From Halichondria panicea (Eukaryota; Porifera; Demospongiae; Suberitida; Halichondriidae), in assembly GCF_963675165.1 (NCBI RefSeq), contig NC_087381.1, positions 6,015,378 to 6,079,377 on the forward strand: 64,000 bases of DNA. The letters are read 5' to 3'. Numbering within the stretch: position 1 is the stretch's first letter; each line of letters starts with the position of its first letter. The notes under the pieces were generated by a model. That model was not told the origin of the DNA. It made no database searches and saw nothing but the letters and a program-made list of their open reading frames with translations. The position numbers and the translations under genes are program-made. Of this stretch, positions 12,520 to 61,182 are shown piece after piece.

Positions 12520-12756
12520 TAGTGTGTAAAGAACGCTGGACGGTTATCGGGATCTTCCTGTAACGTGTGAGTAGATCTAGTGGCCGGTGCCTGAGATATG
12601 TAATAATATTAATGTACCACTCAGCATTGTCATGGGAAATAGAAGTCATGCATGCCTGATCTCTGTGCATCAATGATGCTGAATAGATATCAATTACAGC
12701 TGTGCATATACCCAGACACGAACAAGTTGGTATAGCTTAGAAGTTAAGAAATTCCC

Positions 12757-30025: not shown

Positions 30026-30092
30026 GGGGGAAATATCTTTCATTGAAAAAATTATATATATAATGTTACAAAATTAATATTGCAATGAAAGT

Positions 30093-30449: not shown

Positions 30450-30711
30450 CTATTGTGGTTACTCTATATAATTATGACTTGGACTTTGCATTGCTATTCT
30501 GATTATTATATGTGATTGTTTTGCTATGTTGTTTTCATGATCATCACGCCTTATAGTTTGTCAATTGTCACTGCATGTAAATTATACGCGGTGTCTGCGG
30601 CCTACTGTCTAGAGAGTGCCCATGCTACATAAATGTTAATAATAGGCTAAGAAATGTTGCTGATAATACCATTGTGTATAGTAGATAAAAGAAAACTCCA
30701 AAAATTGTTTC

Positions 30712-32575: not shown

Positions 32576-32670
32576 TAGTTACCTACTATATTCACCTACC
32601 AGCTACTATGACGTCATTAGGAAGGTATATAGATGATGTAATCTAGGATTGGTTACATGGAGAAACAACC

Positions 32671-33608
32671 CATGACGGCCGACATGGCTACTACTGCTGG
32701 AGCTGGAGAGGATATAGCCTTGATCCCAGGCCTTTTGAAGGAGGCTGGAGAAGCAATGCCACTAGATGGTGAGTGTGGGGGCAAACTTATACTATAATTG
32801 ACTATTGCTACAATACTTTAGATATCTAGACTACTCTAAGAATAGTAATTCTAGGAACAGCCCTGTTGGGGCGCGTTTTACACCGCCAGAGCGCATTGCA
32901 TGGTAATTCGAACAATCCATTCATCCAGCACCCCCCTCTCTCAAATCCTGGCTACGCCCCTGCCAATAATTCATTTCTAGCTAGTAAGCTCTGTGTAGCT
33001 AGTACAGCTACACTACAGTGACACAGAGAAGCTACATGATCGGTCCAGCTGCACCAAGAATGCCTCCATGTCTCACAAACCTGTGTGGGCCTGGGAGAGT
33101 ACAGGTCTATTCTCAGTTTGATAATTAGCCCACGCTCTCAACAACAACCCCGCAATAGCCACACCCATTATTAGTTTCATTTCCGGCTGTTCCTGTTTAG
33201 TGTGCGTTCCTGTTTAGTGGCCCTACAAACGTCGGTAGCTTTCTAGGGTAGGTGGGGCTCATTGCTGACTCAGCACTTAACTTTTGTCAGGCACAAACTA
33301 TTCTAGCTCAGCTTTGCAAGCTTTACTGACTCTGCAATTGTTATTTTAACTATGGTTTTTGCAGTGACGATCCGGATGGATGGTTTACGTTTGTATAAAT
33401 TCGAATGTAGCTAGTGGACAATAAGTGTTATATACCCACTTGAATGAAAAGTATACTTGCTATTGGATACAACTAGCAAACAGTCTCAAAAACTGTTGAA
33501 AACAAACAAAAAGCTTGTGCGTATAGCTTGAAGCCAGTGCTAAGCTTCTAGCTCTACGCACTAACTTGTCAATGTCCAAGCAGTGATTCATTAGCTTCCC
33601 CAATAGAA
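32671..33608. other. Upstream region of the multi-Death gene
   Basis: Contains a fragment of a CAGGGGCGTAGCC-type MITE (right end CTGGCTACGCCCCTG at about 32948-32962, related to 50380-50470) and a repeat shared with the 27.9-kb hairpin. No promoter element stands out. Confidence 0.4.
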
Positions 33609-34330
33609 ATGATGGGCAAAAAGTACTCTACACCTGCTCAAGTTCCTTTTCCTTTATCAAAATTAGTGACTGGCCATGGTAAGTATACAGTTGGTTTACA
33701 GAACGTGTGTAATTAGTTAATTCAACCCAGGTCCCATAAATTATCACTCCAGTTTGGATGATCAAGTAGATCACCTGGGCGCATCGTTTCAATGGCTAAC
33801 GAATGAAGCATATCGAAGAATGAAGATATCTGATGTTAGTGTTGACGAGATCTATTTCGCTATATCAATTATACATATGAAATGTTTCGCTAAAAATTAT
33901 GTTAACGAATGCTTTGAGAAAGCCAATACGCTCGCAAAGATTTGGGGCAAACTAAATCATTTATGGGATTTCTTCAACTATGAGCTTTTCCAACAAGTGG
34001 TTCGAGTCATGTTCACTAAAGCAGACGATCCTTTGCTGAGCGAACTAGCCAAGTACGAGAGTGAGATGGAAATATTTTGTTCTAGAACAAAGTTTTGTGA
34101 CTTTGTTAACCATTGGCCATTTTCAATTGCAAAACCGAAGCAAAAAGCGATAAAAAAACTTAAAAAAATACTCGTTACAGTGGACCAAAAATGGGAAGAT
34201 TGCACTTTACATGATGCTAAAAGAATTTTTTCAGTAAGCTTTTCGCTACCTCAGGAATTTATGGTGTTGAAAGGTGCTTGTACCGGGATCCTCCCTCCAT
34301 CTGTGGCCAGCTCAATAAAGAAACTACAAG
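33609..34330 (+). CDS. First two exons: start and unrecognised sponge-type N-terminal domain
   Basis: ATG ATG at 33609 opens MMGKKYSTPAQVPFPLSKLV; the exon ends CAT-G|GTAAGT, phase 1. Exon 2 (33731-34330) continues PINYHSSLDDQVDHLG and holds about 200 residues of mostly helical sequence with FNYELFQQVVRVMF, CDFVNHWPFS, DQKWEDCTLHDAKRIF and FMVLKGACTG. I do not recognise it as a named domain. It is not transmembrane. Past the donor the frame stays open to 34431, but the splice at 34331 links in phase to the Death exon. Confidence 0.75.
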
Positions 34331-37300
34331 GTAATAGTTCTGTTCTCTTCCAGCTCCATAATTGGCACATACCTGAAAAACTCCTTACCATCAGCTCTTA
34401 TTTTTGGAAGTTTCAGTTGTACGAAAATTAATACGGTGTGTATTGTGTTTTTCAATAAAGTGCCGTATTTCTTTTCTTCTCAGTTTTGACAATGGAAACA
34501 CTAGAGAAAGAAAATAAAATCACTGACGAGCAGCTGGACACAAGAGTAGAAGAAACTGATCTACCTCAATTATCCTCATATTTCGACAACACTGACGACT
34601 ATGTTGAAATGCTGGGGCTCTCACCTGGACAGCAAACTTGTGTCATTGAAGAGAAGGCTAGAACAGCCATAAATCAGACACAAGCTGGAATAAAGTTGGC
34701 TCTGAAATACTGGCTGGACAGAGTTCTTGCAGAGGGCACGTTCAGAGCTCTGCTACTTATCCTAATCTCCCTGGACAAAGGAGACATTGCTATCAAGGTG
34801 GCACAGTACTTGTCAGCCAAAGGTGAGTGATTATCTGTACTAACATAGAGCTGAAAATGTGCTAGTGTCTGATAAACGGTAAGAACAGACAAAAAATCGA
34901 TCATCAGACACAACCTACCGTTTCTTCTGTAGGGGGATATGCTGAGAGTCGCATAGTAATTATGTAAGGACAATAATTAAACAATAAAACCCCCAAAGTT
35001 GGAGTTGCAAAACGCTTGTATGTCCATGCAGCAATTATTTCTGCTGAGTCACTCGCGTATCAATGATCAGACAGAAAATGAGGTCAAAGGTCAAATGTTA
35101 TTGGCACCTCACGCAACTGGGGTCAAAGGTCATTAGTGAGCGTGTGCGTGGATGCCAATGACATTTGACCTTTGACCCCATTTGTTGTCTGATCATTGAT
35201 ACACGAGTGACTCAGCAGAAATAATTGCTGCATGGACATACAAGCGTTTTGCAACTCCAACTTTGGGGGTTTTATTGTTTAGTTATTGTCCTTACATAGT
35301 TACTAATGTAGAGAATAAAATTATTGATGCTCAGAATTAAAATCAAGATTCTGTAAGTGTATAAGTAAACGCTCATCGCAGGCTAGTACTTTTTTATGCC
35401 TCGAGGACTAGCCGCACGAGGAATACGATAAAGCTGACTGTGTGTGTGCATGTGTGCGTGCGTATTCCAGCTGTTACTGCTCAACGGTTGCAATGCGACG
35501 AAAACTAACAGCTTCTATAGGCTTCTAGCCACGTTCTCTTGGATTTTGATTCGTGGATTAGCAAACTAAAGCTTCTTTCTCGAGTTAGGCTAGTTTGACA
35601 CACATTGAAGGCTGTTGCAGTCTCTTCAGAATCTGTCATAGCATCATCTGTTCGCACAAACTTTCTATTCAACACATGAGTTAGCCTTGCACTAAGCTAG
35701 CTATAGTAGCCTGATCTCTTTGGACACACCCTTTAATTATTCCTATAGATGCAATGCGCATGCGCACTCATCCCCACATGTTAGAGAATTCAGTGGCAGA
35801 TCAACTTACTGGGTATACTTCTTTTCTTGAGGTCCTGGTATACCGATAAGCAAATGATACCATATAGACTAGATAACAATAGATTGGTGTACACAAGTCT
35901 GGTAACAATAGATACATGTACACAAGTGTTTTCTTCTCAGTATTAATATTTAGATAGATACACACTTTCTGCTTGTTTATATACTATACTGCATGTCTGT
36001 GCTTAAAGGGAAGGTACCATGAAAAAATAAAGTTTTATTTTTTTGCCTTAAAATGTTCTTTGTGGGGTATAAAATAGTCCTGAGACAAAAAAATATTTTT
36101 CTGAAAATTAACTTTTCAGAGAAACAGGACTGTAGGAACACAATTTCTGGCTTAAAATTTTGCTTCCTGTTGTGGTCAAATGTGGGCGCGGTCAAACGTG
36201 ACGTCAGAGTAGGCATTTGTGCTGCATGTAAAATGTATTCTGTGTGTGTTGAGTGTGTTGCAGCTGGTTGCTCCTTTACATCTAGCAGTCATACAGTTCT
36301 CTCAGTTGAAATATGAGTGGGAAAAACAAGTCCTATGTACCAGAGCTCACTGAAAAGCAACAGAATCCTGTTTTTGTGTACAGTGAAAACTCACAGATAT
36401 GACCTCCCTTGCTGCTCAGTTTGGGATCCAAAAGAGGAAGAATCTGAGGTCTGGAGCCATTCTAACTGTTTTCTATAAGGCAGTTATTCAGAAATAAACT
36501 GCCATATCGTCCTGTAAAAAGAGAGGCCCTGAGATCAGAGTCATGGAATGGAGAGATAGCCCTATAGAGAAGTGCCCGGTCAGCCGCTGTATACGGAAAA
36601 GCGAGAACGGAGACAGGTTAATAGCTTCTGTTTTTGTTCAATCATGTATAATTATAATACCTCGCTGCAGTTGATACTTGATGCTTTACAAGAGACAACC
36701 TCTCTATACCGTGACTCCTGCATGTAGACCCGGCATGCAACTGAGACTCCTGATCAGACTACATAATTATGCATGCAGTACCTCTCTTCCTATTTTCATG
36801 TTGGAAACAACTTCAGCAAGGGTCTCATTGTCATGCAAAGACAAGTGAAACCAAAACTTGACGTGTTAATAATGTAAAGATTACCGATAGTAACTCAAAC
36901 CCCATCTAAATTATAAATTATAACTATACCAAGGATGTCGATATTTAGTGTGAAGTGCTTGGACTCATGCATGGTGACTCTCCCCCTGTTGTCAAATCCC
37001 ATACAACCTAATTTTGAGCCCAGCATCTTCTTCTCCTAAACGTTTGTCGCGACATTGACAAAAACATAACTTTTAAATTGTCTCAAGAGTAATACACGTA
37101 ATACAGGTTGAGTCAATAATCCTGCATGTGAAGAAGAAGGAAATTTGTTACGAATCGCAGCTATACTGCATGCACAGCTTGGTAGAACAACTCGTATAAT
37201 TATATGTCTTCCAAGCCAGCCCCAGCACAACCGACTAGTTAAGAAAGTTATACCTTTCACACTGATAAACTTACTGGTGTATACTTCATTCTCATCTGCC

Positions 37301-40300
37301 TCACCATATCTGTGTTTGTGGGCAGTGTACGCCATCTGTAGCACCCACATATCAAGGATCAAATCCATCACACTGATTCTCTATTGGTATAATACATTTC
37401 TACACAACGTACTACCGCATGCATTCACACCTGCATGACACACTCAATTGCATGACTGTATACTTATACATATAGACCTAGTCTATATACTAATTAGTCA
37501 ATTAACATTTCCTATCCTGCCTTCATTGTCACCATCATCATCACCACTCGAACTAGCATGGGAAGGCTTTCTCGCTCATACAGATATGGCTCCACAGCGC
37601 TTGTTTTATCTTCACTGCAGCTTTTTTCATGCTCAACAGATGAGAAGGAGTAGGAAAAACTCAACTGGCTTGAAAATCATAGCTAAAATCACATGTGTCT
37701 GTCAGTCAGACTCATGCAGCCACCAGTATGCATCAATTCAATGTTTACTAGTACCTACTCTGACGTCACGTTTGACCGCGCCCACATTTGACCTCAACAG
37801 GAAGTAAAATTTTAAGCCTTTCTTAACAATCCTGTTCCTCACAAACTTTAATTTAGAAAAAAATTTTTTTGCATCAAGGTTATTTTATATCTCACAAAGA
37901 ACATTTTAAGGCAAAAAAATAATTCTTTATTTTTTCATGGTACCTTCCCTAAAGGTTTGCTCCCATGCAGGGCCACTGTTTGGCTACAGGCAATTTAAGA
38001 CGATCAGTATACACTATTAACTGTGGACACCCCTTTCTTGTGAAACAATCAAAGCACACTGCAAATTATTTACTTGTTCTATAACACTCTGAGCGAAAGC
38101 AAAAACATGGCGAGAGGCATTAGCAAGCGCACGTTTGCAACACTCATTACTTAGGCAATCAACATAATGTGGAGGGTGCAAACTCTCAGGGTACAAACAG
38201 GACTGCTCTTATGACATGTACATAACTCACTGCGTTTGGGATGCTATAACCTTTGGGTTTTGTATAGCAAAAACTGCCTGTAATCTAAAGAGTACAATGC
38301 CACTAATATTATTTGTGAGTAGATATGGTGGAATATTTCTAAGAAATGGTGCTGATACCATTGTGTAGGTGAATGAAACATAATTATTCAAAAATGTTTC
38401 TAAAACGTTTTAGTGGGAAATCATTTAGGTGAAAACGGGGGGGTGATTGTAAAAAAATGTATGTAACTCTGTAAGTAAAGTCTTTTCTGGATAGGTTTGT
38501 TACCAAATGTTAGATAATTTTCATGTGTAAAAAATTAGACCTTAGCCAAGAAATTTACTTCAGTTCCCTTGCTATAATTATAACCGAAAAGGCACCTTTA
38601 AACACAGTACGAAGCAGCGTGTGTACTTGTACGCATACATGTTAAACCAAGAGCACATTACAGAAGGAGCGTCTAACTCTGCATGGGTTCGGAAATCGCA
38701 TCTTGTGTGTTTTCCTAAACGCTGCATTGCCTTATAAGAAAAGTGTTTTACAGACCGCTGTCAGCCTGTGAATATCATTGGATTTGAACGGATTTTGTAA
38801 GTAGTGCAGCAGCAGGAGAGCTATAATTATAGGTTGAGCCAGAAAGAACTAAAATGAATAGCTAGGTCTTTGATGGATGTTGGCCGGTATACATCATGCA
38901 TGAAAGAGACTGTCATTGGTGAGATATCCAATTACTTTGTAAAGAGAAAGTTTGCTAAGCTAGCTGTAGCTTTTCATTTTTATTGACATGCTTGGTAAAG
39001 CAGAGATTGAAAGAGAAGGGGATATAAAACTAGATCACGTGAGCTTAGTATGTGCTCAATGTAAAACAGAGTAAAAAGTTTAGGCACTCTGCGTTGCTAA
39101 AAATGGCGGTTTAAATAACAAAACAGGCCCATGGGAAGCTGGATGACTCACTAATTGACTAGCCGCAGATAGTTTTAAAATATATTTGGTGGCAATAAAA
39201 TCCAGAACGCCAGATTCCCTGGTTTATTGGCTGTACTATAGCCTTTGTGGGACTGCAGAAAGCAAGTTGGTTTTCATAAGATGGTTCAGTGATGGGTTTT
39301 ACTGTTAGCTATGTATTGGTGCCTTTCTCAAAGGCTAGGTCGCTCTGATGCTGAAAGCATAATCGATTTTTAGTGTACCATTTTGCAAAATTTTGCTCCA
39401 GGACAAGTAAAAGAGGTCAAAAAAGTTAAAATGATCAAACAAGCTGTCTCTTGGCTTTTAGCTGAGGAGCTATTCCACTTCCCAACAGTCCACTCTTGCA
39501 TGTGTATATAAAAGCTATTAGTAGCTTCATGTTATGTAGCTTTGGCATCTCCACCGAGGCATCAGCACACCTGCGGTGCTTTCATTTCATTTAATCAGGA
39601 GCACATTACAGAAGGAGCGTCTTACCTCGGGAATCGCATCTCATGCAAGTTTGCAAAGCATATAATAACCTTATGCAAAACCGCGAAGTGCATGGGTGAT
39701 AATCATCTGCGGGCGAATGCTATTTGAGCTGACGATGCACTTTTACCAGAGATTGAAGAGAGAGGGATATGAAACTTGATGACGTGTACATACAATCCGT
39801 GATGCCCGAAATGGGCGTGGTACGTTGTCTGTACTGCAAGTTCTATGTAAAATCATGTAAAACACTTTGGGGACTGTATCTCTAGACTTGCTGCTACATA
39901 TAGAACAAAGTTGATATGATGACCATTATTTTAATGATCGACCATGATTGTTGTTAAAAACGATCACTGCCAAAAGTTCAAGTCTAAAATAATAATTATT
40001 AATGGCTGCAAATCAGCAGAGCCTTGCAGCTCTCTTCTCATTCTTGCAGCTACCAATAGCTATAGTGTTCTAGTGTAGAGCTAACTACTAAGTAGAGTAG
40101 CAACACTCGGTATAGTATAAGGCAAGCTACGTGCTCTTCTGAAAAGGCTGCAATTGCATTCCAACTCGGTAAGTAAAACTAAGCATAACTCGAGAACGAA
40201 CTTTATGTTATGTAGCTTTGGCATCTCCACCGAGGCATCAGCACCTGCAGAATTAAATCCAAGTAAACATGACTATAGAAGCTTATAATATAGAAACTCT

Positions 40301-43300
40301 TGATTCATCCTTGAACAGCTTGCAAAAATGTTCATCATGATTGATATAATGTGTGTAAAAAAGCTATTAGTAGCTTTATGTTATGTAGCTTTGGCATCTC
40401 CACCGAGGCATCAGCACCCGCAGTGCTTTCATATTAAAGCTGGAATTGTTGTATGCTACCTTTGGCCAGGGTCTATATAGGGTATGTATTGTACATAATT
40501 ATAGGCTCATGCAATACATTGCATGTGCAATCGAATTCCCCTTATATTCTTTAGCTTGCTGTCAATTATTTGAGCTTGCTTGCTGGCAGAAATTAAATGT
40601 GTTTTCTTGTGTATGTAGGAGAAGCTGTTGTGGAAGTCACTAAAAAATCTAACGAGTTCAGCAGTTTTGGAATTAAAATTACCGTCCCGGAAAATTCGCT
40701 ACCTGAAGGTATCGATACGTGTGTCCTACACATATCCTTCGAGTTATCCACTAACTTTGAGATTCCCGCTAACTCAGAACTACTCAGTTCAATTTATCGT
40801 GTGAAGTGTGAGCCCAAAATGCAGTTCAAGAAGCCTGTCACCCTGGAAATGCAACACTGCATGAGCTTAAACTCTGACCATCAACAAAGGCTTGTCTTTG
40901 CTCGAGCAACAGATCAGAGTAAAAAGTTTGAGATCCTGGAGGGTGGTCACTTTCCTATTGGTGAACGCTATGGATCCATCCAGCTTACTAGTTTCAGTTG
41001 GTTTACAACTTTGTGTGAATTATTAGGCTATCCAACTGAGAAGATGTACAGTGCATTGCTCTTCAGAAATAACTTGCCCTGTGACGTAATTGACATGAAA
41101 TGTGTGGTATGTCAGGATCTAGACACTCATGTAAAGGTAGGTTTCCACAATCATAATTTGTGAGCCTATAATGAATTATACAATAATTATAATTATGCCT
41201 ATACCATGCAGTGTTACGTAACATAATCATTACAGGTAATTAGAGAGGCTTTAGAAAGAGATGGATTCACAAAAGAAATGGATCTAGATCAAATTCAATT
41301 TGAAAATACAGTAGAGATGAAGCTACATTCAGAGAATCCCGAGCTTTGGACTGTTACTAGAGTAACATCCACTGTGAGTTATAGTAGTATCAGTGGTAGT
41401 TTTTAAAACAAAAGCATAATTATAGTTACACTCTTGGGGAGGATCATATATAATGCAACAAAACAATGGACATGCATGCAGGTGTAACTATATTATCATG
41501 AACTTTCTATCTTGTATATATAGCTGTCCAGAGATTGTATTGAGGGATACTCAAGCGTGTTGGATTCTAATAGACGGCGTGGAGTTATTCCAGCCATCCA
41601 TTATAGATTTAACCTAAAGGAAAAAAATATTTCTGAATCAGTAAACTTTCTGCTGACAAAAACCGATTTAGAGAGCCAACACTTGATCCTACATATTTGC
41701 TGTAAGTATATATATAATTATAATGATCTTTCCTGAATTTTACTGTCCTGATACTTGCAACAAACCATGCATCCTTAACAACTTAGTTTCCTCAGTACCC
41801 CACACTCTGGGAAATAGTGACTCAGCTACACAGAGAGGTCAGTTTGTGTGTATAATTATAGTAGATGATTAATTATGTGCAGCTATATTTTTATATTTTT
41901 ATTTTCCTCAGTATGTCAGACTGCCGGGAAGAGTGACTTAACCACACAGAGAGGTTTGTATATAATTATAAGTGCATTGTCTACAATATACGTACATAGC
42001 TATAGCTACATTAATAATATTAAGCCAAATTAAGACAGTCATATAATATAATTATATATAGGTTATGAAGTGTCAACAAGCTATGATTGCGAATCCATTG
42101 TGAAGACCTCATCATCAGGTTTGATTGCTATAACATTGTATTGTTATAGATGTGTCAACGAAATAGCCCATGCATGCACAGCTTCAGCTAGTAATCGTAG
42201 ATTCAAGTACCTATATTATTCAAAGAGGTAAACTATATAGTTATGTATATACGTTAATTATATAGTAATTAGTATTCTAAACATGTTCACGTCACTGCAT
42301 GCTCATTGCCTCTTATGTATATAGCTAGTCGAATCCCTCTCCAAGATCTAATAAAGCGATACCGCCTGACTGACAAGCAACTCAACAGTGAAATCAAGAA
42401 ATCTGATACTCCCGTTATAGCCCACTATTTCGAAAATGTGCAACTTTATTCGAGTGCAATGGAACTAACTCTTGCTGAAGAAGCTGATGTGAAAGAATTG
42501 CGTCGTGTAGATGGCAATCAAACAGCCATGATGAAGTGCTTGCAAATCTGGAAAAAGCATGCTCCTTCTCAAGCAACTTACAGAGCTCTACTGGATATTG
42601 TACTGGGATTGGGGGAAGGTAACACAGCTCATCAAATCTGTCAGCAATTTACTCGACGTAAGTACATGTACATACGTTATTTCATATCAGGTGAATCCCC
42701 TGAGAAGCTACTCAAAATTTAACGCGTGCTTGAAATTACAAAAACAAATTACCTGAATGGTGTCAGGAGCACATAAGCTAGTACATGAATAGAGATGCAT
42801 ATGGAGTGTCTTATACTATATATGCAGTGTATTGCGGAAACAATAATCGTCCTAACTGTAATAATTTCCTTGTTTGTAATGTGCTAAGGCACTTGATCCG
42901 AATAATTATAATTAAGTATAGCAGAACTCAGCGGTTTGACATTATTATATATGGCAATGTTTTTACATAGCAAGATGATATAATTTCCGGGTATAGTAAC
43001 ACACTGCATCTCCTCATGTGCTCCTAATGATGTATGGTAGAAACTGGATTATTAGCATGCAGGCTGCATACAGTGTATCTTATATATAACTAGAGCACTG
43101 AAGTGCAAACCCTCAGCTGGTGACATGATACTAAAGAAAACGGAGGAATGGTATAATTATAATGCAGTGCATGTAGCATGCCTATATATGACTAGCACAG
43201 CACCTCAAACTAAACTAACAACGTACAACTACATGAGACATGCACTGTGAACTGGGATCACAGCAAAGAAGCCTGGAGTCTTAGACTAAGAGAAGTATGG

Positions 43301-46300: not shown

Positions 46301-49300
46301 ATTGTTGTGTTTTTAGCAAGGGCGTATGAAGAAAAGAAGACATGCAACTACAATCTATCGTATTAGAAATGGGCGGGGGGTTTATGTCTAAAAATAATAA
46401 AGAATTTATTGCACGTGCACTTTATATAATTATACTCTAGACTAGCCTTGTTTTTACTCTATTCCCTAGTGGGCGGTTGGGCTAAATATAGCATATCCTG
46501 CTGACTCATCAATAATACGACGCGCACAGTATACATTGTGAGTTGCATGCCCTCTTCTCTTCATACGCCCTTGTTATTAGGTATTGTTGTACGAATGTGC
46601 TGAGCGTTTTGTGTCAGTGTTGGTATCCATGGGACCATGCATGTCTATTGCCAATTCCTTTGAGATTGCACCAGATGAGCCATTTGTATATATAGCAGCT
46701 ACATTGTATTCATTATACAGTGAAACTCTCCTCCTCTGACAAGCCGTACCACAAAACGCTGTTTGAAGTTGCATATAGGCAAGGAAAGAACAAGTGGTAT
46801 AACATTGGCATCAGTCTGAATGTGTCTGTGTTTGATTTGGAATCCATTCGGAAAAACAATCCATCGGACGTTGGAGATTGTTTCCGTGCAATGTTGCTGA
46901 AGTGGTTTGAAAGCAGTCCTGACTGCTACCTTTACGATTTCCTGAAAGCTCTCAGATCAGAGCCTGTGGAACTTGAAAACCTCTGTCCAAAAGTCGAGGA
47001 AGCCATCTTAAATATTGCAAAATTAGGTAACTATAAACTGGTTATAGAGACAGTATTGACGTGACATCATTAATTTTGTTGGAGCATAACAACTTTTTAT
47101 TGAAGACAGAACTCTCCCATTCAATGCCTCATTAAGAAAATTCTAAGGCTATTGCGATTCTAACATAGACAGGCGTATAGACATTACGTCTATGCATGTT
47201 AGAATCGCAATAGCCTTATATATAGTAATTTGCTTGAGTATAGCGAGCCTCTCTATAACCTAACAGGTGTACATACCTCACGCATGCAGGGTCACCATTA
47301 TTTTGTGTGAGGCAAGTAATGTTACTAAACCACCTAGGGATGAAGTTAGATGTATAACGACCACTTTTAGTGTAATACCCAGCTAGCTATGCAGTTTTAA
47401 GGGTTCTGTTGTCAATGGCATCATTGTGCATTGTGGGGCAGAGATAAGATGATTAACTGCTCCAATGAATGTAAACACAGCAATAATTTGGTGTAAACTG
47501 TAGGGTAAATAAGACATTAAAACTATTCAATATACGTAACACTTCTTGTATATAGGCACAGCTTCTGAAGTGGGAGGAGTTGGTCTACAAGAGCTGATGG
47601 ACCATGTCGATACCGTCCAACTTGATAGAGAGATCCCTGATGATGAACTCCCAGTCATAGCTGCCTATTTCAACAATGTGGAGCTCTACTCTCAAGCAAT
47701 GGGTCTGACTCCCGCTGAACAAGATGATGTTAGAACTTCCCTCCATCAATACGATACTCAGACAGCCATAACCAGGTGCTTGTTGTTATGGCAGCAACGC
47801 GACCCATACAAGGCAACGTACAGAGCACTGTTGGAGCTGCTACTGAGATTACATAGAACACAAGTAGCTACTCAAGTCTGTCAGTACCTGGCTCAGAATG
47901 TGAGTACACCATTTATGTCAGTCTAGAGTTACAGAGTCCGTCAGCATTTTAGAAGTATACTTGAAACTAAAGTCTACTTGCGTTGAGTTCGGCCCCGGAA
48001 GTTATGTAGTAAATAATGGCTTCATTTATGCTTTATGTGGTGGACAAGTATGCCTGGGACTTCTGCATGGAAAACGCTAACTTTTGTTGGAGCTTTTCAG
48101 CCCTACAGCATAATAGATAGAAGAGCTTTTTAACAAGGAATCCAATGGTATATGAAACTTTGAATTTCAGGGAAGTATGACAAGGTTATGACAACTTTAT
48201 GAAGGTTGAACTCAACACAAATGGACTTTAGTACTGCCATGCACACGGTAGAAAAATTACTGGGGGCTTTCTCTTGCTAGGCATTCCATTACCAGCATCT
48301 GCTTATGTGTTTCCATTTTCACATAAAATGTCCATTCTTCTATGTTATAATCTGTAATTTGCATGTGAAGGGGGAAATGGTACTATAATGGGACAATGTC
48401 CCTAAAGTTACCTCCATACTGTGTGATTATCCATCCAGTACAAAAATGTGTATAGGTCTGGTGTCTGTAGGATCTAAGTTAGTTGAGCGGGACAAGGACT
48501 CTGATTAAAAAAAAAGGTTGTCACTTCTACTATTAGAATTTCACCTAAAAAAAGGTCAACATTAATTCTAACAGTCAGCATGCGCTGGAGAGTTATTAGC
48601 CTTTTAGTCACTAAAGAGCTAGAACGCTATATAGCAGCTTGGTAGCTGGTAGCTGCAAGAATGAGAAGAGAGGTCAACCGTATAATATACTGATGCAGCA
48701 GCCATTAATTTTAGACTTGTACTTTTCGCATCCTTTTACAATCGTTTCTTGCCTTATGATTACCCTGATGCAAAAATGCTCGTCATGATAATTATCGTGA
48801 GCAATAGCTAATAGCTGTTATATGTATACATCCACCAAGGCATCAGCACCCATGGTGCTTTCATTATATAAGCCTTGTATAATTCAACTTTATGTATAGA
48901 CGGCCATGGAAGGTTGCCTTCTTCCACTAAAATTTCTAGTAACACCTTTATTGTACAGAAGATGGAGGGTGTGGTCACTGGCTCGGACTTATGAACTGAT
49001 TATATACGCAAGCAAGCAAGTATCCGACTGTACAGGACACACGTTATGTATGTAGATCTATTTTTAGTATTGGATATTTCCATGTAGTCTTTGTACAAAA
49101 TGCAATAATTATATATAATAGTGTAAAATATATAATTGTACTAGCTAGTCCACTGCCATTAAATTAATTTTCTACTGTTTGCATGTCTATTATATAATTA
49201 TGCTTATACCCATGCAAACACTGGTTTGTACCAGTCATGGTTATTATATACTTTTGTGTCGGCTTCTATACTTTGTACTCTAGTATGGTGATCTGCTTCT

Positions 49301-55300: not shown

Positions 55301-58300
55301 AACCAAAGACGGTTAAACCCTTACCTCAAACTGTCCAGTCTCGTCCGTTAGTATAGCCAAGAGGAGCATTGTTGGGTTAGCTGGATATTAGCCATTGCTC
55401 CTGTACAGAGAAGTAGACATTCTAAATACGTGTAGATCTATATATATATTAAATTTCTTGTATTAAACAGGTTATAGTGTCATTGTCGACGAGCTAGTGA
55501 TGGCAGCACCAAGTTCTCTAGCTCACACTCTTCACTTGATCCACCATATTAACTATAGTCTACCTAGATCTTGCCAAACATGAACAAGACTTGATAGCAT
55601 AGGGCCCACACAAAAAGATCTGACCTTAACAAGCTTGACAAAGCTTTATATCTCTTCCCTTGTGTTCAGAATAATGTTTTCTAAGCTTCAGAGAAGAGAG
55701 AAGCTTCAGCTAAGAGCCATTCCAATCAATTCCAATAATGATAAAACGGGAACTGACTTCTAGTACACGATAGTACACGAATATAAATGTCACGAAAGTG
55801 AACGAGAATATTCATTCGTCAGAATCTGACGAACGACTGATGCATGCGCAGACAACTAGTACCAGGCCTAGTTGTTCGCCTAACCGTTATAAAGCGAAAA
55901 CTCGACCTGGGATCGAGGCTAGGTAGTAGACTAACACTTATATACCACAGCTGGCCGTTTCAATGCTGAAAGAGAGCCTCATCTAGGCTTAGCCTATAAG
56001 TTTTAATAAAGTTTTCATAATTATCTTCAGCTAGAATATTATATTAAACACGCGTGGTTATTCCTAATTCCTGCGCGCAGTTAAACAAAGAACTATAATT
56101 ATACCAAATGTTCAAGTCAGTCTGCACAAGGTCAAAGGTAAATAAATCATGTCCTTGGCTATTGATGCAGTGAGCTGGATTTGGCCCTATAATTATATAT
56201 ATTTTGAAGAGTGTCTCAAAGGAATCACTATTAGCATATGTAGCTATATAGTGGGACCAAATCCAACTCACCTGCATCAAATGGCCATTTCATACATGCG
56301 TTAATGACATAACCTTTAACCTTGTGCTGTCTGACCTGAAAATGTGATGGCGGTTCTTTGTTTAACCACGTGTGCATGTTGTGTGTCTCTTACAGCACGC
56401 GAGCATTAAAAATATAGCCGCACGCGTTTAATTAGCCTATATATACAGCGAGCGCTTAGATATAAATGCGCGAAGTTAATTGTGGCGGTATAGGCGGAGG
56501 CAGGTGACCCTTCCTTCTCGGCCACGCTGAACTTCTTGAACATGGGTGAGAAGGAAAGGATAAAACCACTCCTCCAGGTACACATAATAACAGAATGCTC
56601 CATGTCTGACAGTGACTAACTACCAATGCATGTGCAATGATATACATGCAAGCATGCATGTGCTTGTATCATAGGCACCAACTGTCCCGAATTGGCCTGG
56701 ACTGTCCCAGATTAAGCACCCCTGTCCCTTGCATGTCCCAAACTGCTGTTTACCTCGGATTTTTAAGGTTGCTGATTGCATGTGAGCTAGGTTATCCAAT
56801 AAAGTTCAACAAGCCTTTGAACTACTTCTAGCATTTTCAAACAATGAACAGAAACACATGGAGACAGATATTTACACAAGAGAACTTGAGGTATATAAAT
56901 ATATATACATCATAATTATATAGGTGCCAGCCAAATTCAGTGACAAAACATGCATGGGGTGTTAGCCCCGAACAGCTGGCCGCCAAAGGAGGCGGCGAAT
57001 TTTAGGGAAATCACAAACTATACGACTCTGTGCAAAGAAATTATTTTTTTCCCCATGTTTTCACATGTGATATAAAAATTGTTGTGGGGATGCCCCAGTC
57101 TTCACTACCCAGCTCTCATGCGGCTTCACTAGCTCACTGCGCATGCTTATTAAAATTAATTGCCAAGCAAGTGAGCCCCGCCCACCACTTATTGGACTGA
57201 TCAAGCTATAGCTAGCTAGCTAGAGCATTCATTTTGTTTGACTGCTTTTCTCCAATGACTCTATTATCTGACATGCATGATACCGTATTACTAGAATATT
57301 TTGCGGATGAAAAACCTTTGCGAATGAGCCAAATCAGCAGAAATGTTTACCCTTTGGGATCTAACTATTGTGTTATGGTAAGGATCATGTGTATTTATAC
57401 TAGTAAATAGTTTAGGTTTTGCAGATTTTATTGTTGCGAATGGATCATGCATGCAACCATCGCAAAGTTCGCAAATGTTTGATGCTCGCAAAACATTCTA
57501 GTAATACGGTATCTAATATGCTGAACGTGTATTTTCTATTTACTTTCTCAGCACGATTTGTAGATAAATAAATCATAAAGTGTATTATAATTTTAGCCTG
57601 CCACACAATTTATTATTATTTGCATGCACAGCATCATCATCAGAGAAGGCACCCAAGCATAAACCGAGAAGTAATCACAGAACAGTCATTCTACACTCAG
57701 ATTGTTCTGACTCTAATGGATGCTCAAACAATTGATGAGAGTCTGGAGGATGCTAGCAAAGATTGGTTCAATTTGGGATTGGCTTTTGGACTGGAGCTTT
57801 CAGAGTTGAAGAATATTGAAGATGAATACCGCTATAACAAACGCCGCCTAACGGAGGTGGTAGTCAAGCGTCTTCAAGTCACTGATCCAGAACATCCGAT
57901 GACATGGTCTTACATATGTGAATGTCTGAGGAGTCCCACTGTTGAGCGTAACGATGTAGCCAATGAAATTGAAGGTAAAGTGTCTACCTCTGTATAGTCT
58001 ATTCATTTTGGACTGACATAGAATATGTCGGGAAATGTTTTCCTTAAATGTAATTTGAATGCATTAATGTACTCTCTGCATGCATGTATATATAGAATTT
58101 GCAGACGTTGTGAAGTGGGGAAGTTTCTGATATTAGTGCATGCATGGGTGCACATAATTATATGAGCCTAAACACCATGCATTATGCAATATGCTAGCGT
58201 GACTGCTCAGCAGCCAGAGATACTCCAATATTGTCATCAGCTGACAGAGTCACAGTAGGTATATACTAAATATTAGATAAAACTTCACAATGGAGCTGGC

Positions 58301-61182
58301 TTCTGGCAGTTTACATGGAGCTTTGTATACAGTCACCTGTTTTCTCACGCCATCGCTTTAGTGCAATGTAATAACCATGCAAACTACAATTCTGCATGAG
58401 GAGACTGGAACAGCCTCGGTATAAGTTAGCAATAACTTAAGAAAGTAATTCAAATCCAAGAGAGTATGGCTAAAAGCAGCTGTTAGTTTTATAGCATTGC
58501 AACTGTTTAGTCTCATATAGATCAGCCAGGATTTTAGAGAAAGGGGTGCTGTCGAGGGCGCGAAGCGCCCGATTTTTAGCCGCGCAGCGCCGAAATTTGG
58601 TTAACCGGAAGCCACACCTCTTATTAATGATGTCATAATTAACTTATCTGCCAAGTTGGGCGTGGCTGAACGTTTATTTGCATAGAGAAGCTGGCCACGA
58701 TCACAAAAGAGAACTAGTTTATAGATTTAAGCCAGAATAGCTCACAGTTTAGAGACTGAATTGTTTTCCTTGCCTATACTAGCTAGCTAACAGCCTAACT
58801 GCAGCAAGATCTGGAAGAGAAGGGGTGCTCAGCTGGATAATCAGATACATTTCTCTGTGATTTGTATACTTGACTCAGGCTGGTTGGGGGTGCTCGAGCA
58901 CCCCTAGCACCCCCCCTGGCTACGCCCCTGCCCTTCCTACTGAAGAAAAGGGGTCTGAGCACTAGGGCTGTCCCAATTATTCAAAAAAATTTGTTATTCT
59001 TATTATCAATTTTTCTTCCATTGAAAAGCCAACATGAACATAAACCATAAATACAGTATAAATTACATTGCATGCAGCCATATAAAACTAAACAACTGAC
59101 ATGTGTACTGCACTTACATTAGAATAATGACATTAATTTTTATTGACCTTTATGACCTTTTAAACCTCCGACTCTACCTATTACTCTAGCTTCACCTCAC
59201 CTTAAAATTATTCTAGAATAATTAGGACAGCCCTACAGTACTGAGCACTCTTGTCTTGAGGTCATTTCACAATGGAATGTACCTAACCTTACGCACCTGC
59301 GTATTTATTAATTGTACAAAGCGTTAAGCAGGCATCTTTCTCTCTCTGAAAAACGTGCTTCAATCTATTGTGATTTGCCTGTGGTGCTAACTCTGTGCCC
59401 AAGGACCCCTGCTTGGCTTGCTTATATACTTCGTAGCAGTGTCTATGTATGAAGCGTTTACCATGCGTGATGCATGCGTTAATGATTATCCAAATGCATT
59501 GAGCAATGTGCAGCTCTTTATTGCCTCCTATAATATAGAATAATTCAATCTAATTGAGCCGCTGGAATTCCAGCGTGTGCAACAAAACTACACCAAGAGT
59601 GCATGCTCAGACGGTCCTTCAGGTCTGGCTGAACCATGCAATTGTTATAAGCACATCACAGTCAGCTTTATCGTATTCCTCGTCATGTGGCTATAATCCC
59701 TCGAGGCATAATACTACCAACATTCGAGGACCATACAAACATTACGCCAATTTTGTTTTAAGGATAGACTATACCGGAAGTATACAATGATTCAAAATAT
59801 CTTGGAGCATAAAGTTTCGAGGTTTAGGTGTTTAGGCCAATCCGCGAAAGTTATACGCCTCGAACATTAATTAATTTGACACTATGTTATAGTTAGAACA
59901 TGGGCATAAGGTATCTATGTGTTTTAGTGTCCCAAAGCTCGAGGGTTTTAGCCCGAGGGATGAGGGACACTATAACCATAGATACCGAATGCACATGTTC
60001 TAACTGATTTAGATCCCAAAACCTATTGGCTACTAGAAATGCACTAGCTTAGCAACAGTCAACCTATATAAACAGCCAACCTAGCAACTGCATCATTATT
60101 CTTTTGAAAACTAATATCTGAAGTTGGCATCTCTCTGTGTCTCTACTATAAATGTGTGGTCTCTATTCATCAAGTCAACCCTGCTCCTCTACCTCACTTT
60201 GATGGACAAAATTATAGTCCTAGCTCCACCCACAAAACGGAAACATCCAGCTCCTCTACAAGTCCAGCACACTTCCCAAGAAACGAGCCGCTCGTACTAC
60301 TCTCACAAAGCAAAAGGAAGACATCTAAGCTATAATTTGCAGCAAACAAGCCCAGCAAACGAGCGGCTCCTATACTACTCTTGAACAAAGCGAAAGGAAC
60401 TTTAGGAAGAAACCAAAGCTAGAATCCCAGCACTTCCATACATCCAGCTCCTCCCCCATGCAGCCTTGCAGCAAAAAAGCACAGCACACTGCACAAAAAA
60501 CGAGCGTCTCCTACTACCCTCGAACAAAGCCAAAAAAAGAAACTAGAGCTTCTCTCTTTCATTCTAGCTCTGTTATTATATTACTAGACAAAGCATCTAG
60601 CTACAATAATTGTTATGTTATTACATGTGTATCTTCTTGTAAATCACAATACAATGTACAATGTTGTAGTTTGTAGCCCAGAGCAATCTATAGTACCAGT
60701 ACGTACTATAGCTCATAGTTCCCTGCTAAATACACTCAAATGGGATCTAAACAATAGCTATTATGTGGTCTAAAATATAGTGTTTATATATTCATGCCAC
60801 TATTATTAATAATTTATATTTATAGAAGTCATGATCAGAAGATCACTTGCTAATCGACTCACTCTCCAAGAACTAATAAAGCATCACAGTCTGACTGACG
60901 AGCAACTCAACAGTGAAATAAAGGACTCTGATACTCCCTACCTGGCCTCATGTTTCGATAATGTGGAACTTTATTCGAGTGAAATGGGGCTAGCTATTAC
61001 TGAACAAACTGATGTGACAGAATCGTGTCGTATATATGGCAATCAAATAGCCATGATGAAGTGCTTGAAAATCTGGATTCAACACAATCCTTCACAAGCA
61101 ACTTACAGAGCTCTACTGGATATTGCACTGCGATTGGGGAAAGGAGAAATAGCTCTTGAAATCTGTCAGCAATTGATCCAAC
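33609..61182 (+). CDS. ZU5 and multi-Death-domain protein, 14 exons found, 3' end open
   Basis: Exons: 33609-33678, 33731-34330, 34484-34822, 40619-41136, 41236-41373, 41524-41701, 41787-41837, 41912-41953, 42062-42118, 42325-42657, 46721-47026, 47556-47899, 57632-57974, 60826-61182. All have AG/GT borders and each junction keeps phase. Together they encode more than 1225 residues: residues 1-223 unrecognised helical domain (CDFVNHWPFS, WEDCTLHDAKRIF), about 224-336 Death 1, 337-509 ZU5, 510-664 linker, 665-775 Death 2, 776-877 Death 3, 878-992 Death 4, 993-1106 Death 5, 1107-1225 Death 6. ZU5-Death is known from PIDD, UNC5 and ankyrins, where Death domains recruit partners in apoptotic or inflammatory complexes; six in one chain suggests a scaffold (inference). 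No signal peptide or membrane segment is seen. Introns of 5.8, 4.1 and 9.7 kb are filled with transposons. It could instead be two or more tandem genes, since exon linkage is unproven. Confidence 0.75.
34484..34822 (+). CDS. Death domain 1 exon
   Basis: After TTCTTCTCAG, phase 1 to phase 1. Type-A Death domain: KITDEQLDTRV, LPQLSSYFDNTDDYVEMLGL, KYWLDRVLAEGTFRALLLIL and IAIKVAQYL, ending AAAG|GTGAGT. Confidence 0.85.
34964..35295. repeat. Foldback MITE (332 bp) in an intron of the multi-Death gene
   Basis: Arms of about 150 bp: GTAAGGACAATAATTAAACA at the left, GTTTAGTTATTGTCCTTAC at the right, running through CCCCCAAAGTTGGAGTTGCA and CAGCAATTATTTCTGCTGAG in both arms. A truncated second copy starts at 51915. 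Confidence 0.85.
36007..37950. mobile_element. 1.94-kb TIR element containing a P2X7-ballast-like gene remnant
   Basis: Inverted termini of about 200 bp: AGGGAAGGTACCATGAAAAA at 36007 and its complement ending at 37950. They share TTGCCTTAAAATGTTCTTTG and GGGCGCGGTCAAACGTGACG. It sits wholly within the 5.8-kb intron of the multi-Death gene. No clean target duplication was found. Confidence 0.8.
37036..37660 (-). pseudogene. P2X7-type intracellular (ballast) domain remnant inside the TIR element
   Basis: Reading on the minus strand, an acidic segment EPYLYE, then after a frameshift SHASSSGDDDGDNEGRIGN, matches the start pattern of P2X7 C-terminal-domain proteins (PYxFEP, acidic linker, RLGN). 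Further on, from 37371, LDMWVLQMAYTAHKHRYGE, then (after a possible 40-nt intron GTAAGT...ACTAG) RLCWGWLGRH, IRVVLPSCACSIAAIRNKFP. The WVLQ-A-Y, CWGxLG and RVVLPSCA-IR-FP motifs are the core of that domain. The Cys-rich zinc-binding middle part (WCxCGxC) was not found and the acidic part is out of frame, so it looks broken. By family knowledge this domain existed in other proteins before vertebrate P2X7 acquired it and binds zinc. Confidence 0.72.
38290..38600. repeat. Solitary terminal-repeat copy of the 61961-63480 element family
   Basis: Shares AGAAATGGTGCTGATACCAT, GTGTAGGTGAATGAA, AGTGGGAAATCATTTAGGTG and GGGGGTGATTGTAAAAAA with the inverted end of the element at 63170-63480. A short relic of the same end is at 30645-30712. 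Confidence 0.65.
38601..40618. other. Repeat-rich intron preceding the ZU5 exon
   Basis: Two degenerate direct repeats (around 38640-39080 and 39590-39800) share GAGCACATTACAGAAGGAGC and the AGAG(A/G)GGGATAT(A/G)AAACT block. A short repeat, GCTTTGGCATCTCCACCGAG followed by GCATCAGCACC, occurs near 39540, 40216 and 40390 and, altered, near 46227 and 48830. No exon was recognised. Confidence 0.55.
40619..41136 (+). CDS. ZU5 domain exon
   Basis: After TGTATGTAG, phase 1; ends at AAG|GTAGGT, phase 0. It reads GEAVVEVTKKSNEFSSFGIK, ITVPENSLPEGIDT, ANSELLSSIYRVKCEPKMQF, KKPVTLEMQHCMSLNSDH and LTSFSWFTTLCE. This is a full ZU5 fold with its VPE-L and KPV-L-hC motifs. Beyond it, LLFRNNLPCDVIDMKCVVCQ begins a UPA-like linker that continues in the next two exons. 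ZU5 mediates intramolecular or spectrin-like interactions in UNC5, PIDD and ankyrins. Confidence 0.87.
41236..42118 (+). CDS. Linker exons between ZU5 and Death 2 (UPA-like part plus three mini-exons)
   Basis: Exons 41236-41373 (VIREALERDGFTKEMDLDQI) and 41524-41701 (LSRDCIEGYSSVLDSNRRRG, PAIHYRFNLKE) continue a UPA-like beta-rich region. They are followed by 41787-41837, 41912-41953 and 42062-42118, tiny phase-1 exons encoding GNSDSATQRG, GKSDLTTQRG and YEVSTSYDCESIVKTSSS. The first two mini-exons are evident duplicates of each other (G-x-SD-x-x-TQRG). Their reading frames join without shifts. Confidence 0.75.
42325..42657 (+). CDS. Death domain 2 exon
   Basis: Phase 1 to phase 1, TATATAG to GTAAGT. 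Type A: RIPLQDLIKRYRLTDKQLNS, HYFENVQLYSSAMELT, MMKCLQIWKKHAPSQATYRA, LLDIV and ICQQFTRR. It is very similar to Death 6, so one is a duplicate of the other. Confidence 0.87.
43395..43485. repeat. Near-perfect 40-bp-arm hairpin
   Basis: GGTACGGGATCACTTCAGTT continues to AATAGGTAATGAAGCC, and the complement ends GATCCCGTACC. Loop of about 12 nt. It lies in the intron after Death 2. Confidence 0.8.
43872..44129. repeat. MITE, CTAAAGTCTATTTGCATTGA family, copy 1
   Basis: Ends CTAAAGTCTATTTGCATTGA and AACACAAATAGACTTTAG, giving a TA duplication if the tips are AAGTC/GACTT. The interior (GTGGTGGACAAGTATGCCTG) matches 47967-48231. Confidence 0.8.
44236..44446. repeat. MITE, TACCGTATAGC family, copy 1
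   Basis: Ends TACCGTATAGCAGGTAATTT and AATTACACGCTATACGGTA with a TA at each edge. The interior has multiple ATTCGTGG motifs in both directions. The second copy is at 61267-61476. Confidence 0.85.
45221..45783. repeat. Foldback element with 120-bp arms
   Basis: Left arm 45221-45341 (AATCCGACTAGAAAAACATT...ACAACGTCA) and right arm 45664-45783 are inverted and nearly identical (CCAATCCTAG..., CTCTCGTCTGATTTCTTG). About 320 bp of spacer. A relative of one arm occurs at 61660-61800. Confidence 0.82.
46721..47026 (+). CDS. Death domain 3 exon
   Basis: Phase 1 both ends, TTATACAG to GTAACT. Type-B Death domain: KPYHKTLFEVAYRQGKNKWY, NIGISLNVSVFDLESIRKNN, CFRAMLLKWFESSPDCYLYD and FLKALRSEPVELENL. 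Confidence 0.85.
47145..47217. ncRNA. Perfect 22-bp stem-loop (miRNA-precursor-like or micro-MITE)
   Basis: AAGGCTATTGCGATTCTAAC-AT at 47145-47166 pairs perfectly with 47196-47217. A 29-nt loop itself has AGAC/GTCT pairing. It lies in the 529-bp intron between Death 3 and Death 4. It could equally be a tiny inverted-repeat transposon. Confidence 0.35.
47556..47899 (+). CDS. Death domain 4 exon
   Basis: Phase 1 to phase 0, TATATAG to GTGAGT. Type A: GLQELMDHVDTVQLDREIPD, AAYFNNVELYSQAMGLT, TRCLLLWQQRDPYKATYRAL and TQVCQYLAQ. Confidence 0.87.
47967..48231. repeat. MITE, CTAAAGTCTATTTGCATTGA family, copy 2
   Basis: CTAAAGTCTACTTGCGTTGA to AACACAAATGGACTTTAG, aligned throughout with 43872-44129. 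Confidence 0.82.
48240..51460. other. Intron sequence between Death 4 and Death 5, first part
   Basis: No exon was recognised. It contains a short TIR-like unit at about 50170-50275 (AGTCTCGCGATATATACCAG against CTGGTATTACAAGACTAT) and a CAGGGGCGTAGCCAGGATTT element end near 50380. The frames at 50630-50934 show no family I know. Confidence 0.45.
51467..52366. repeat. Nested foldback cluster
   Basis: Three inverted pairs are interleaved. The first joins 51467-51590 and 51805-51930 (TGTCTGATAAACGGTAAGAA against its complement; the unit also occurs at 34850-34960). The second joins 51595-51830 and 52130-52360 (AGTAAGGCATCTATATTCAG; AAGTCTTCAAGAGCTGAAAA). The third is the truncated copy, from 51915, of the 332-bp foldback. 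They record successive insertions into one another. Confidence 0.7.
51625..51670. repeat. 46-bp Mutator-like micro-element
   Basis: TAGCCTCGATTCAAGGCC and GAGTCGAGGCTA enclose GCTGTAAAGCGGA. The exact direct repeat GTTCAGAC is on both sides (51617-51624 and 51671-51678). Confidence 0.75.
52737..52875 (+). pseudogene. Truncated copy of the start of the Death 5 exon
   Basis: GATCTTCATCAGAGGAGCAA with AAGCATAAACC(A/G)AGAAGTAATCACA(A/G) aligns to the first part of the exon at 57632. A GTACAG acceptor and a GAG|GTATGT donor are present. In the Death frame it reads SINQEVITRL, parallel to SINREVITEQ in Death 5, but a Death domain does not follow. Joined to Death 4 (phase 0) it would stop at once, so it is probably not used in the main transcript. 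Confidence 0.5.
52946..53690. mobile_element. Pogo-like non-autonomous element (745 bp) with transposase N-terminal fragment
   Basis: CTTGATTAAACGCCCG at the left and GGGCGTTTAATCAAG at the right are inverted and flanked by TA (52944-52945 and 53691-53692), typical of Tc1/mariner/pogo elements. On the minus strand at 53391-53515, SYDLGFKLRAVAAAKMS, then AVQEFGVD resembles the N-terminal DNA-binding helix-turn-helix of pogo/CENP-B-type transposases. There is no DDE domain, so it cannot move itself. Confidence 0.78.
54696..55921. mobile_element. Non-autonomous Mutator-like element, TAGCCTCGATCCCAGG family, copy 3 (inverted, 1226 bp)
   Basis: Same termini, interior inverted relative to copies 1 and 2. 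The exact 10-bp direct repeat GGTAGTAGAC flanks it (54686-54695 and 55922-55931). An internal tandem duplication of about 150 bp (CTGTGAGTATAGGACAATAT at about 55125 and 55273) makes it longer than the others. Confidence 0.88.
56436..56577 (+). other. Possible TATA box and orphan coding fragment
   Basis: CCTATATATACAGCG at 56436-56450 resembles a TATA box. Downstream, after TATAG, an open stretch reads AEAGDPSFSATLNFLNMGEK then ERIKPLLQ up to a CAG|GTACAC donor-like site. It has the look of real coding sequence, but no following exon was found and I do not recognise the protein. Confidence 0.25.
57281..57511. repeat. MITE, TACCGTATTACTAGAA family (231 bp)
   Basis: TACCGTATTACTAGAATATT at the left and ATTCTAGTAATACGGTA at the right, TA at both edges, with TTTTGCG / CGCAAAA next. 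It lies just upstream of the Death 5 exon. Confidence 0.85.
57632..57974 (+). CDS. Death domain 5 exon
   Basis: Phase 0 start after GCATGCACAG, phase 1 end at GAAG|GTAAAG. Type B: SINREVITEQSFYTQIVLTL, DASKDWFNLGLAFGLELSEL, NIEDEYRYNKRRLTEVV and TWSYICECLRSPTVER. The phase-0 acceptor fits the phase-0 donor of Death 4. Confidence 0.82.
59889..60760 (+). repeat. Hairpin plus TATA cassette 1 with tandem repeats
   Basis: GTTAGAACATGGGCATAAGG...CTATG at 59894 pairs with CATAGATACC...ACATGTTCTAAC at 60003. Inside are AGTGTCCC / GGGACACT and CTCGAGGGTTTTAGCCCGAG. Downstream come a CCAAT-like box, a TATA box, and about three degenerate ~110-bp repeats containing AAACGAGC-(C/G)-x-TC-x-TACTAC. One frame (60202-60384) reads MDKIIVLAPPTKRKHPAPLQ then a repeat including SRSYYSHKAKG before a stop. 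Confidence 0.5.
60024..60073 (+). promoter_or_regulatory. CCAAT (ATTGG) and TATA box of cassette 1
   Basis: ATTGGCTA at 60024 and CCTATATAAACAG at 60063. The spacing of about 40 bp and the order are those of a core promoter; the hairpin lies directly upstream. Predicted only from motifs. Confidence 0.45.
60826..61182 (+). CDS. Death domain 6 exon (last exon found of the multi-Death gene)
   Basis: Phase 1 both ends, TTTATAG to GTAAGT. Type A: RLTLQELIKHHSLTDEQLNS, SCFDNVELYSSEMGLA, MMKCLKIWIQHNPSQATYRA, LLDIALRLGKGEIALEICQQ. It is near-identical in pattern to Death 2. The donor at 61183 implies at least one more exon, which I could not find before the window ends. Confidence 0.87.

What the first reader, a model, noticed from the sequence alone, without database searches (positions are those of the whole stretch)
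33609..61182. One gene with ZU5 and six Death domains of two alternating types
Fourteen plus-strand exons chain together with matching splice sites and phases into a single frame of more than 1225 residues: novel N-domain, Death, ZU5, linker, then Death x5 in the order A-B-A-B-A after ZU5. Known ZU5-Death proteins (PIDD, UNC5, ankyrins) have one Death domain. A string of two Death-domain classes in one chain suggests a built-in scaffold that could nucleate a signalling platform by itself (inference).
Basis: partly seen in the sequence, partly recalled or inferred. Interest (0 to 1): 0.75.

Follow-up and report, generated by a model that had tools for sequence, protein, structure and literature searches.

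The report
Sponge-like Death and ZU5 exon cluster
The stretch holds real protein-coding pieces for a ZU5 domain and six Death-type domains that splice in one frame, but copies elsewhere in the genome suggest at least two neighbouring immunity-type genes built from swappable exons rather than one gene with six Death domains.

Summary
Fourteen exons (33,609-61,182) join into one stop-free frame of 1,218 residues: e1, N-domain, Death A1, ZU5, UPA-like exons, linkers, Death A2-B1-A3-B2-A4. The A type folds confidently as a Death domain; a tree separates an A class from a B class.

"One gene" is not shown. The chain has no stop codon and runs on in frame past the window through four more Death exons. 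Most Death exons here are entered in phase 1, so matching phases say little. Paralogues support blocks: e1-N-A1, ZU5-UPA-Death, B1-A3. The A3-to-B2 join is weakest: it needs a poor acceptor across 9.7 kb, and a second copy of e8-e9-A2-B1-A3, behind Ig and COR-A exons, has no Death exon after it. B2 and A4 more likely belong to that downstream gene.

The "novel" N-domain also occurs in a NACHT-LRR ORF here and resembles the TRADD-N domain reported beside 1-3 Death-like domains in Amphimedon. The ZU5 exon keeps an SF/S sequence like the CARD8/NLRP1 autocleavage site, so a cut-and-release UPA-Death nucleator is the likeliest mechanism (inferred). New variant of a known kind.

The parts
32657..32768 (+). 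possible earlier first exon (38 codons begun, phase 1 exit) that joins e1 in frame
   Evidence: ATG, donor GTGAGT, joins e1 in frame; no second copy in the genome; no coding signal of its own
   Evidence: matches at C11N and C4N, where a B-type Death exon lies just upstream
33731..34330 (+). e2: N-domain (TRADD-N-like, shortened)
   Evidence: 14 other genome matches; NACHT-LRR ORF in L026; in-frame deletions of 9, 18 and 27 nt
34484..34822 (+). e3: Death A1
   Evidence: groups with A1 of C11 in the A class; no Pfam Death match alone
40619..41136 (+). e4: ZU5 with SF/S sequence
   Evidence: Pfam ZU5 1.2e-8; nine close paralogues plus one shattered copy; motif
41236..41373 (+). e5: UPA-like region, part 1 (label inferred from position)
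   Evidence: matched at 10 of 10 ZU5 loci, only a short match at C10a
41524..41701 (+). e6: UPA-like region, part 2 (label inferred from position)
   Evidence: matched at 10 of 10 ZU5 loci
41796..41837 (+). e7: linker exon
   Evidence: similar pieces after e6 at C6a, C6b, C8, C15 and C1a
41912..41953 (+). e8: linker exon
   Evidence: copy near 84,977 of the extended stretch
42062..42118 (+). e9: linker exon
   Evidence: copy near 85,153 of the extended stretch
42325..42657 (+). e10: Death A2
   Evidence: fold pLDDT 90.5, Death fold
46721..47026 (+). e11: Death B1
   Evidence: Pfam Death 15.3 bits, below cut-off; B class
47556..47899 (+). e12: Death A3, phase-0 exit
   Evidence: Pfam Death 24.6 bits, above cut-off; phase-0 donor kept in 8 of 8 A3 copies read
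57644..57974 (+). e13: Death B2 (start uncertain: 57597 is the stronger acceptor, in phase 1)
   Evidence: no Pfam Death match alone
60826..61182 (+). e14: Death A4, open at its 3' side
   Evidence: Pfam Death 14.6 bits, below cut-off; donor phase 1

Best explanation
The stretch covers one exon-shuffled, immunity-type gene and the front of the next. Gene 1 (from about 32.7 or 33.6 kb to somewhere past 47.9 kb and probably before about 50.4 kb) would encode a shortened TRADD-N-like domain, Death A1, ZU5-UPA, and Death A2-B1-A3. Death B2 and A4 would open a Death string (B2, A4, B2', A4', B2'', A5) of a second gene that carries Ig, COR-A and further Death exons, 57-89 kb from the window start. 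Likeliest mechanism: the ZU5 domain cuts itself at SF/S, the N-terminal half holds the UPA-Death half in check, and its removal frees that half, which clusters through UPA and nucleates Death-domain assemblies with two kinds of partner. Shown: exons, frames, classes, paralogue linkage, the motif. Inferred: gene borders, the UPA label, cleavage, clustering, an immune role.
For: ZU5-e5-e6 with a Death exon downstream in 9 of 10 loci. e1-N-A1 at C11N; B1-A3 at C3a, 0.6 kb apart. A Death exon upstream of ZU5 at C6a, C1a and C1b. The e8-e9-A2-B1-A3 set recurs behind Ig, COR-A and Death A6 with no Death exon after it up to 94 kb of the extended stretch. A3 to B2 in frame needs an acceptor scoring -3.3, while the best one, 4.9, is phase 1 and does not fit; 68% of the gap matches other places in the fetched set, 24% on other loci. 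F-S at the end of ZU5 in 8 of 10 loci, F-C in one, F-E in one; H-F-S in a distant copy. CARD8/NLRP1 SF/S and PIDD HF/S: PMC3210808, passages. UPA lowers the threshold for filaments: PMC7794386, passages.
Against: No transcript. N is not within 100 kb of any of the nine close ZU5 paralogues, and after A1 at C11N no known exon was found in 5.7 kb, so A1 to ZU5 is weakly supported. No end exon for gene 1 was found. UPA gets no Pfam or PDB sequence match. One ZU5 locus has an in-frame stop and another copy is shattered. dN/dS of 23 exon pairs is 0.45 to 2.27, so purifying selection is not shown.
Confidence: 0.5

Rival explanations
1. Three or more genes or remnants: N-A1 (a truncated relative of the Death-N-NACHT and Death-N-kinase genes), ZU5-UPA-A2-B1-A3, and the B2-A4 string.
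For: N-A1 occurs without ZU5 at C11N; the window copy lost the GS turn of its N-domain and, by the alignment, its usual donor; 5.8 kb separate A1 from ZU5. At C14 an N-Death unit and a distant ZU5 copy are parted by a reverse-transcriptase-like ORF and a Kelch ORF.
Against: The three deletions in the N exon keep the frame; A1 keeps a strong donor; Death exons precede ZU5 at three other loci.
Confidence: 0.27
2. One gene, 33.6-61.2 kb or longer, with six or more Death domains.
For: All joins can be made in frame, 1,218 residues, and 1,679 with four more Death exons; multi-Death strings occur elsewhere.
Against: Phase matching is weak evidence; A3 to B2 needs a poor acceptor; no stop; the array runs into Ig and COR-A exons.
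Confidence: 0.15
3. A cassette array: one transcription unit in which mostly symmetric Death exons are alternatively spliced.
For: Most Death exons are entered in phase 1 and many leave in phase 1; three B2 and two A4 copies lie in tandem, 76-79% identical to the window copy.
Against: Ig and COR-A exons interrupt the array; A3 leaves in phase 0; no splicing data.
Confidence: 0.08

Closest known systems
TRADD-N/Death protein expansion of the sponge Amphimedon (PMC8195603; sections 8 and 10 read, other passages seen)
   Same: Death-like domains next to a TRADD-N-like domain, with varied partners behind them
   Different: TRADD-N is not confirmed by a profile here and the window copy is shortened; the read sections do not describe ZU5 with it in Amphimedon, though ZU5-UPA fusions are mentioned for another TRADD-N clade
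ZU5-UPA-Death proteins: PIDD, UNC5, ankyrins; and CARD8/NLRP1 (ZU5-UPA-CARD) (PMC3210808, passages)
   Same: ZU5, then a conserved region in the place of UPA, then a Death exon; SF/S at the end of ZU5
   Different: several unlike Death exons on one or both sides; UPA not confirmed by sequence; cleavage untested. That the known ones have one Death domain is recalled
NLRs (NACHT-LRR), e.g. DEATH-NACHT-LRR genes of Dysidea (PMC12909245, passages)
   Same: the N-domain also occurs in a NACHT-LRR ORF of this genome
   Different: no NACHT or LRR match in the joined protein

Membership tests
ZU5-UPA-Death proteins (PIDD/UNC5/ankyrin type) | ZU5 domain | tested here: met
   Pfam PF00791, 35.6 bits against a cut-off of 21
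ZU5-UPA-Death proteins (PIDD/UNC5/ankyrin type) | UPA domain after ZU5 | tested here: inconclusive
   e5-e6 conserved at 10 loci, but no Pfam UPA match at E 0.1 and no PDB sequence match for that region
ZU5-UPA-Death proteins (PIDD/UNC5/ankyrin type) | Death domain after UPA in the same protein | tested here: inconclusive
   Death exon downstream at 9 of 10 loci; same transcript not shown
Self-cutting ZU5 proteins (PIDD, CARD8, NLRP1) | HF/S or SF/S at the end of ZU5 | tested here: met
   S-F-S in the window exon; F-S in 8 of 10 loci
Self-cutting ZU5 proteins (PIDD, CARD8, NLRP1) | cleavage itself | not testable with these tools
   needs protein
Death domain, A type | Death fold | tested here: met
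   A2 model pLDDT 90.5; best PDB match RAIDD Death domain, TM 0.67/0.79, E 0.046
Death domain, B type | Death fold | tested here: inconclusive
   B2 model pLDDT 52.8; B1 15.3 bits, B2 none; a related exon in L036 scores 31.2 bits, above the cut-off
TRADD-N | profile match | tested here: inconclusive
   no PF13820 match for three N-domain pieces from paralogues; resemblance by eye only
TRADD-N | small residue plus serine in the beta2-beta3 turn | tested here: not met
   present in paralogues (GS), deleted in the window copy by the alignment
NLR | NACHT and LRR in the same protein | tested here: not met
   joined protein has Death and ZU5 and one weak sub-cut-off match only

The most novel reading that the evidence does not exclude
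One transcription unit that runs from about 33 kb past the window's end, in which mostly symmetric Death exons of two classes are strung or alternatively spliced onto a self-cutting ZU5-UPA switch, so that one locus makes many release-type Death-domain nucleators with different partner choices.
Probability: 0.08. Interest if true: 0.75.

Novelty: new variant of a known kind. Interest (0 to 1): 0.42.

Why it matters
If gene 1 is right, a ZU5 module of the PIDD/NLRP1 kind is joined to an NLR-associated N-domain and to several unlike Death domains. That would make this genome a place to test how release-type signalling platforms were assembled by exon shuffling: nine close ZU5 paralogues, some with Death, ankyrin or kinase exons near by, can be compared directly with long-read RNA.

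Tried and rejected
A home-made gene finder split most Death exons into small genes with implausible end exons and, at one setting, joined two outside the window; I treat it as uninformative. B1 as a last exon (stop at 47,064) was rejected: a stop in frame survives in the close copies, but three more distant paralogues share only a GT donor there. An end exon at 48.4 kb was rejected because the C3a copy has indels that break the frame. The B-type model had two rows and failed. UPA by profile against PDB sequences: no hit; the single sequence gave only two weak ZO-1 matches over part of ZU5. NCBIfam gave nothing useful. dN/dS over 23 exon pairs ran from 0.45 to 2.27 (Biopython YN00, no errors given): neither proves nor excludes function. 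Genome counts are lower bounds: 150 candidates were scored of 503, 386, 464, 638 and 605. The phase scan looked near the expected ends only; the B1 donor at 47,026 fell outside it.

Print: searches for sponge+ZU5+Death domain (7 papers), Amphimedon+death domain+NACHT+ankyrin (8), sponge+'tandem death domains' (0), two of four terms on multiple Death domains and exon shuffling in sponges (604, 12 listed), Amphimedon+ZU5 (6), PIDD+ZU5+UPA+death domain+invertebrate (5), TRADD-N+sponge+death domain (3) listed no paper that I saw describe this architecture. I saw listings, passages and two sections, not supplements, where architectures would be listed. The 2014 Amphimedon NLR paper is not held.

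Full report
What is there. The 14 exons are 33609-33678, 33731-34330, 34484-34822, 40619-41136, 41236-41373, 41524-41701, 41796-41837, 41912-41953, 42062-42118, 42325-42657, 46721-47026, 47556-47899, 57644-57974 and 60826-61182; joined they give 1,218 residues with no stop. ZU5 and one Death exon (A3) pass Pfam's cut-offs one by one; three Death exons match below them and two not at all. The joined protein scores Death 7e-15 and ZU5 1.8e-7. The A type is a Death fold; the B-type model failed. In a tree of 38 Death exons the A and B classes part with 97/98 support, drawn with a midpoint root and a long-branch warning.

The modules look shuffled rather than made by doubling one A-B pair. A1 groups with the A1 of C11, A3 with A3 copies on C3, C7 and C8, B1 with copies on C3 and C6, and B2 with copies on other chromosomes. 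The A2 query drew 638 candidates and the B2 query 464, of which 150 each were scored and all 150 listed as matches.

Why the frame does not prove one gene. Of 29 Death-exon acceptors scoring above 2, 27 are phase 1; of 32 such donors, 20 are phase 1 and 12 phase 0. Unrelated Death exons would therefore often join in frame. The same logic carries the chain outside the window through four more Death exons to 1,679 residues, still without a stop. Beyond them lie an Ig exon (I-set 3e-5), a 771-aa ORF with a COR-A match below the cut-off (26.2 bits against 35.3) and Death A6, so the chain runs into what looks like another kind of gene.

Junction by junction. e1-N-A1 recurs at C11N; at C4N e1-N is followed by an ORF that reads as a kinase by eye. 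At both, a B-type Death exon lies just upstream of e1, so e1 is probably internal there; in the window that exon was not found. A possible earlier first exon at 32,657-32,768 joins e1 in frame but has no coding signal and no second copy. A1 to ZU5 has no parallel with N, but a Death-type exon stands upstream of ZU5 at C6a, C1a and C1b. ZU5-e5-e6 is found at 10 of 10 loci, with a Death exon downstream at 9; at the tenth, C1c, only 3.4 kb downstream were fetched. B1 to A3 recurs at C3a. A3 keeps a phase-0 donor in 8 of 8 copies read. A3 to B2 is the weakest join: a 9.7-kb gap, 68% of which matches other places in the fetched set and 24% on other loci; an acceptor scoring -3.3 where the best, 4.9, is phase 1 and does not fit; and a second copy of e8-e9-A2-B1-A3 with no Death exon behind it up to 94 kb. 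The 46.2-50.4 kb stretch is duplicated at 87.2-91.4 kb at 91-98% identity, so if the second copy's last exon lies inside that block, gene 1 ends there too; I found no such exon.

What stands around ZU5 elsewhere. C15 has ankyrin repeats and a kinase ORF upstream (Pfam); C10a and C10b have ankyrin-like pieces and C1b and C6b ORFs with P-loop-like motifs (by eye and by similarity). Whether these belong to the same genes as ZU5 is not shown.

The N-domain. It matches 14 other places. In one, N, NACHT (7.7e-13) and LRR share a 1,130-aa ORF. The order of strands and helices, with a GS turn in paralogues, looks by eye like TRADD-N, which PMC8195603 (sections 8 and 10) reports in 357 Amphimedon proteins, mostly behind 1-3 Death-like domains. 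Pfam did not confirm it. By alignment the window copy has three in-frame deletions (9, 18 and 27 nt), one of which removes the turn, and a further gap where the paralogues' donor lies.

Mechanism. CARD8 and NLRP1 cut themselves at SF/S and PIDD at HF/S, at the end of ZU5 (PMC3210808, passages), and UPA lowers the threshold for filament formation by the freed part (PMC7794386, passages). The window has S-F-S at that end; among ten loci eight have F-S, one F-C and one F-E, and a distant copy on C14 has H-F-S. Cleavage, the UPA identity and filament formation are inferred.

Results against my reading. There are no transcript data. N is not within 100 kb of any of the nine close ZU5 paralogues, which weakens A1 to ZU5; at C14 an N-Death unit lies upstream of a distant ZU5 copy but is parted from it by a reverse-transcriptase-like ORF (by eye) and a Kelch ORF. 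One of the ten ZU5 loci has an in-frame stop and a further copy is shattered. dN/dS scatters around 1. The small exons e1, e7, e8 and e9 have no coding signal of their own.

Verdict. The Death and ZU5 exons are real. One gene with six Death domains is possible but the less likely reading.

Noticed in passing
window 17611-20575, minus strand: ROCO-like gene pieces: a Roc match below the cut-off beside ankyrin-like repeats and an A-type Death exon 80% identical to A6 outside the window.
   Followed up: partly
window 12748-13812, plus strand: Secretin-family 7TM receptor ORF (7tm_2, 2.3e-19).
   Followed up: no
window 29144-32551: Long arrays of 9- and 27-bp tandem repeats just upstream of the finding.
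   Followed up: no
window 7877-9720, plus strand: ORFs that read by eye like the helical and leucine-rich part of an NLR; no domain search made.
   Followed up: no
extended stretch 79262-88851 (L002, L003): Ig exon, COR-A ORF, Death A6, then copies of e8, e9, A2, B1 and A3: a second user of the same Death tail.
   Followed up: partly
L034-L036 (G000:C14:4969500-4994499): Distant ZU5 copy with H-F-S at its end, behind a Kelch ORF and before a B-type Death exon.
   Followed up: partly
L031 (G000:C14:996000-1003499), minus strand: Four B-type Death exons within 4 kb before an ORF with a P-loop-like motif: a compact multi-Death string.
   Followed up: partly
window 57.6 kb (B2): Relative to its paralogues the start of B2 carries a shift of frame after the shared acceptor, read by eye, so this copy must use another acceptor or be damaged.
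   Followed up: partly
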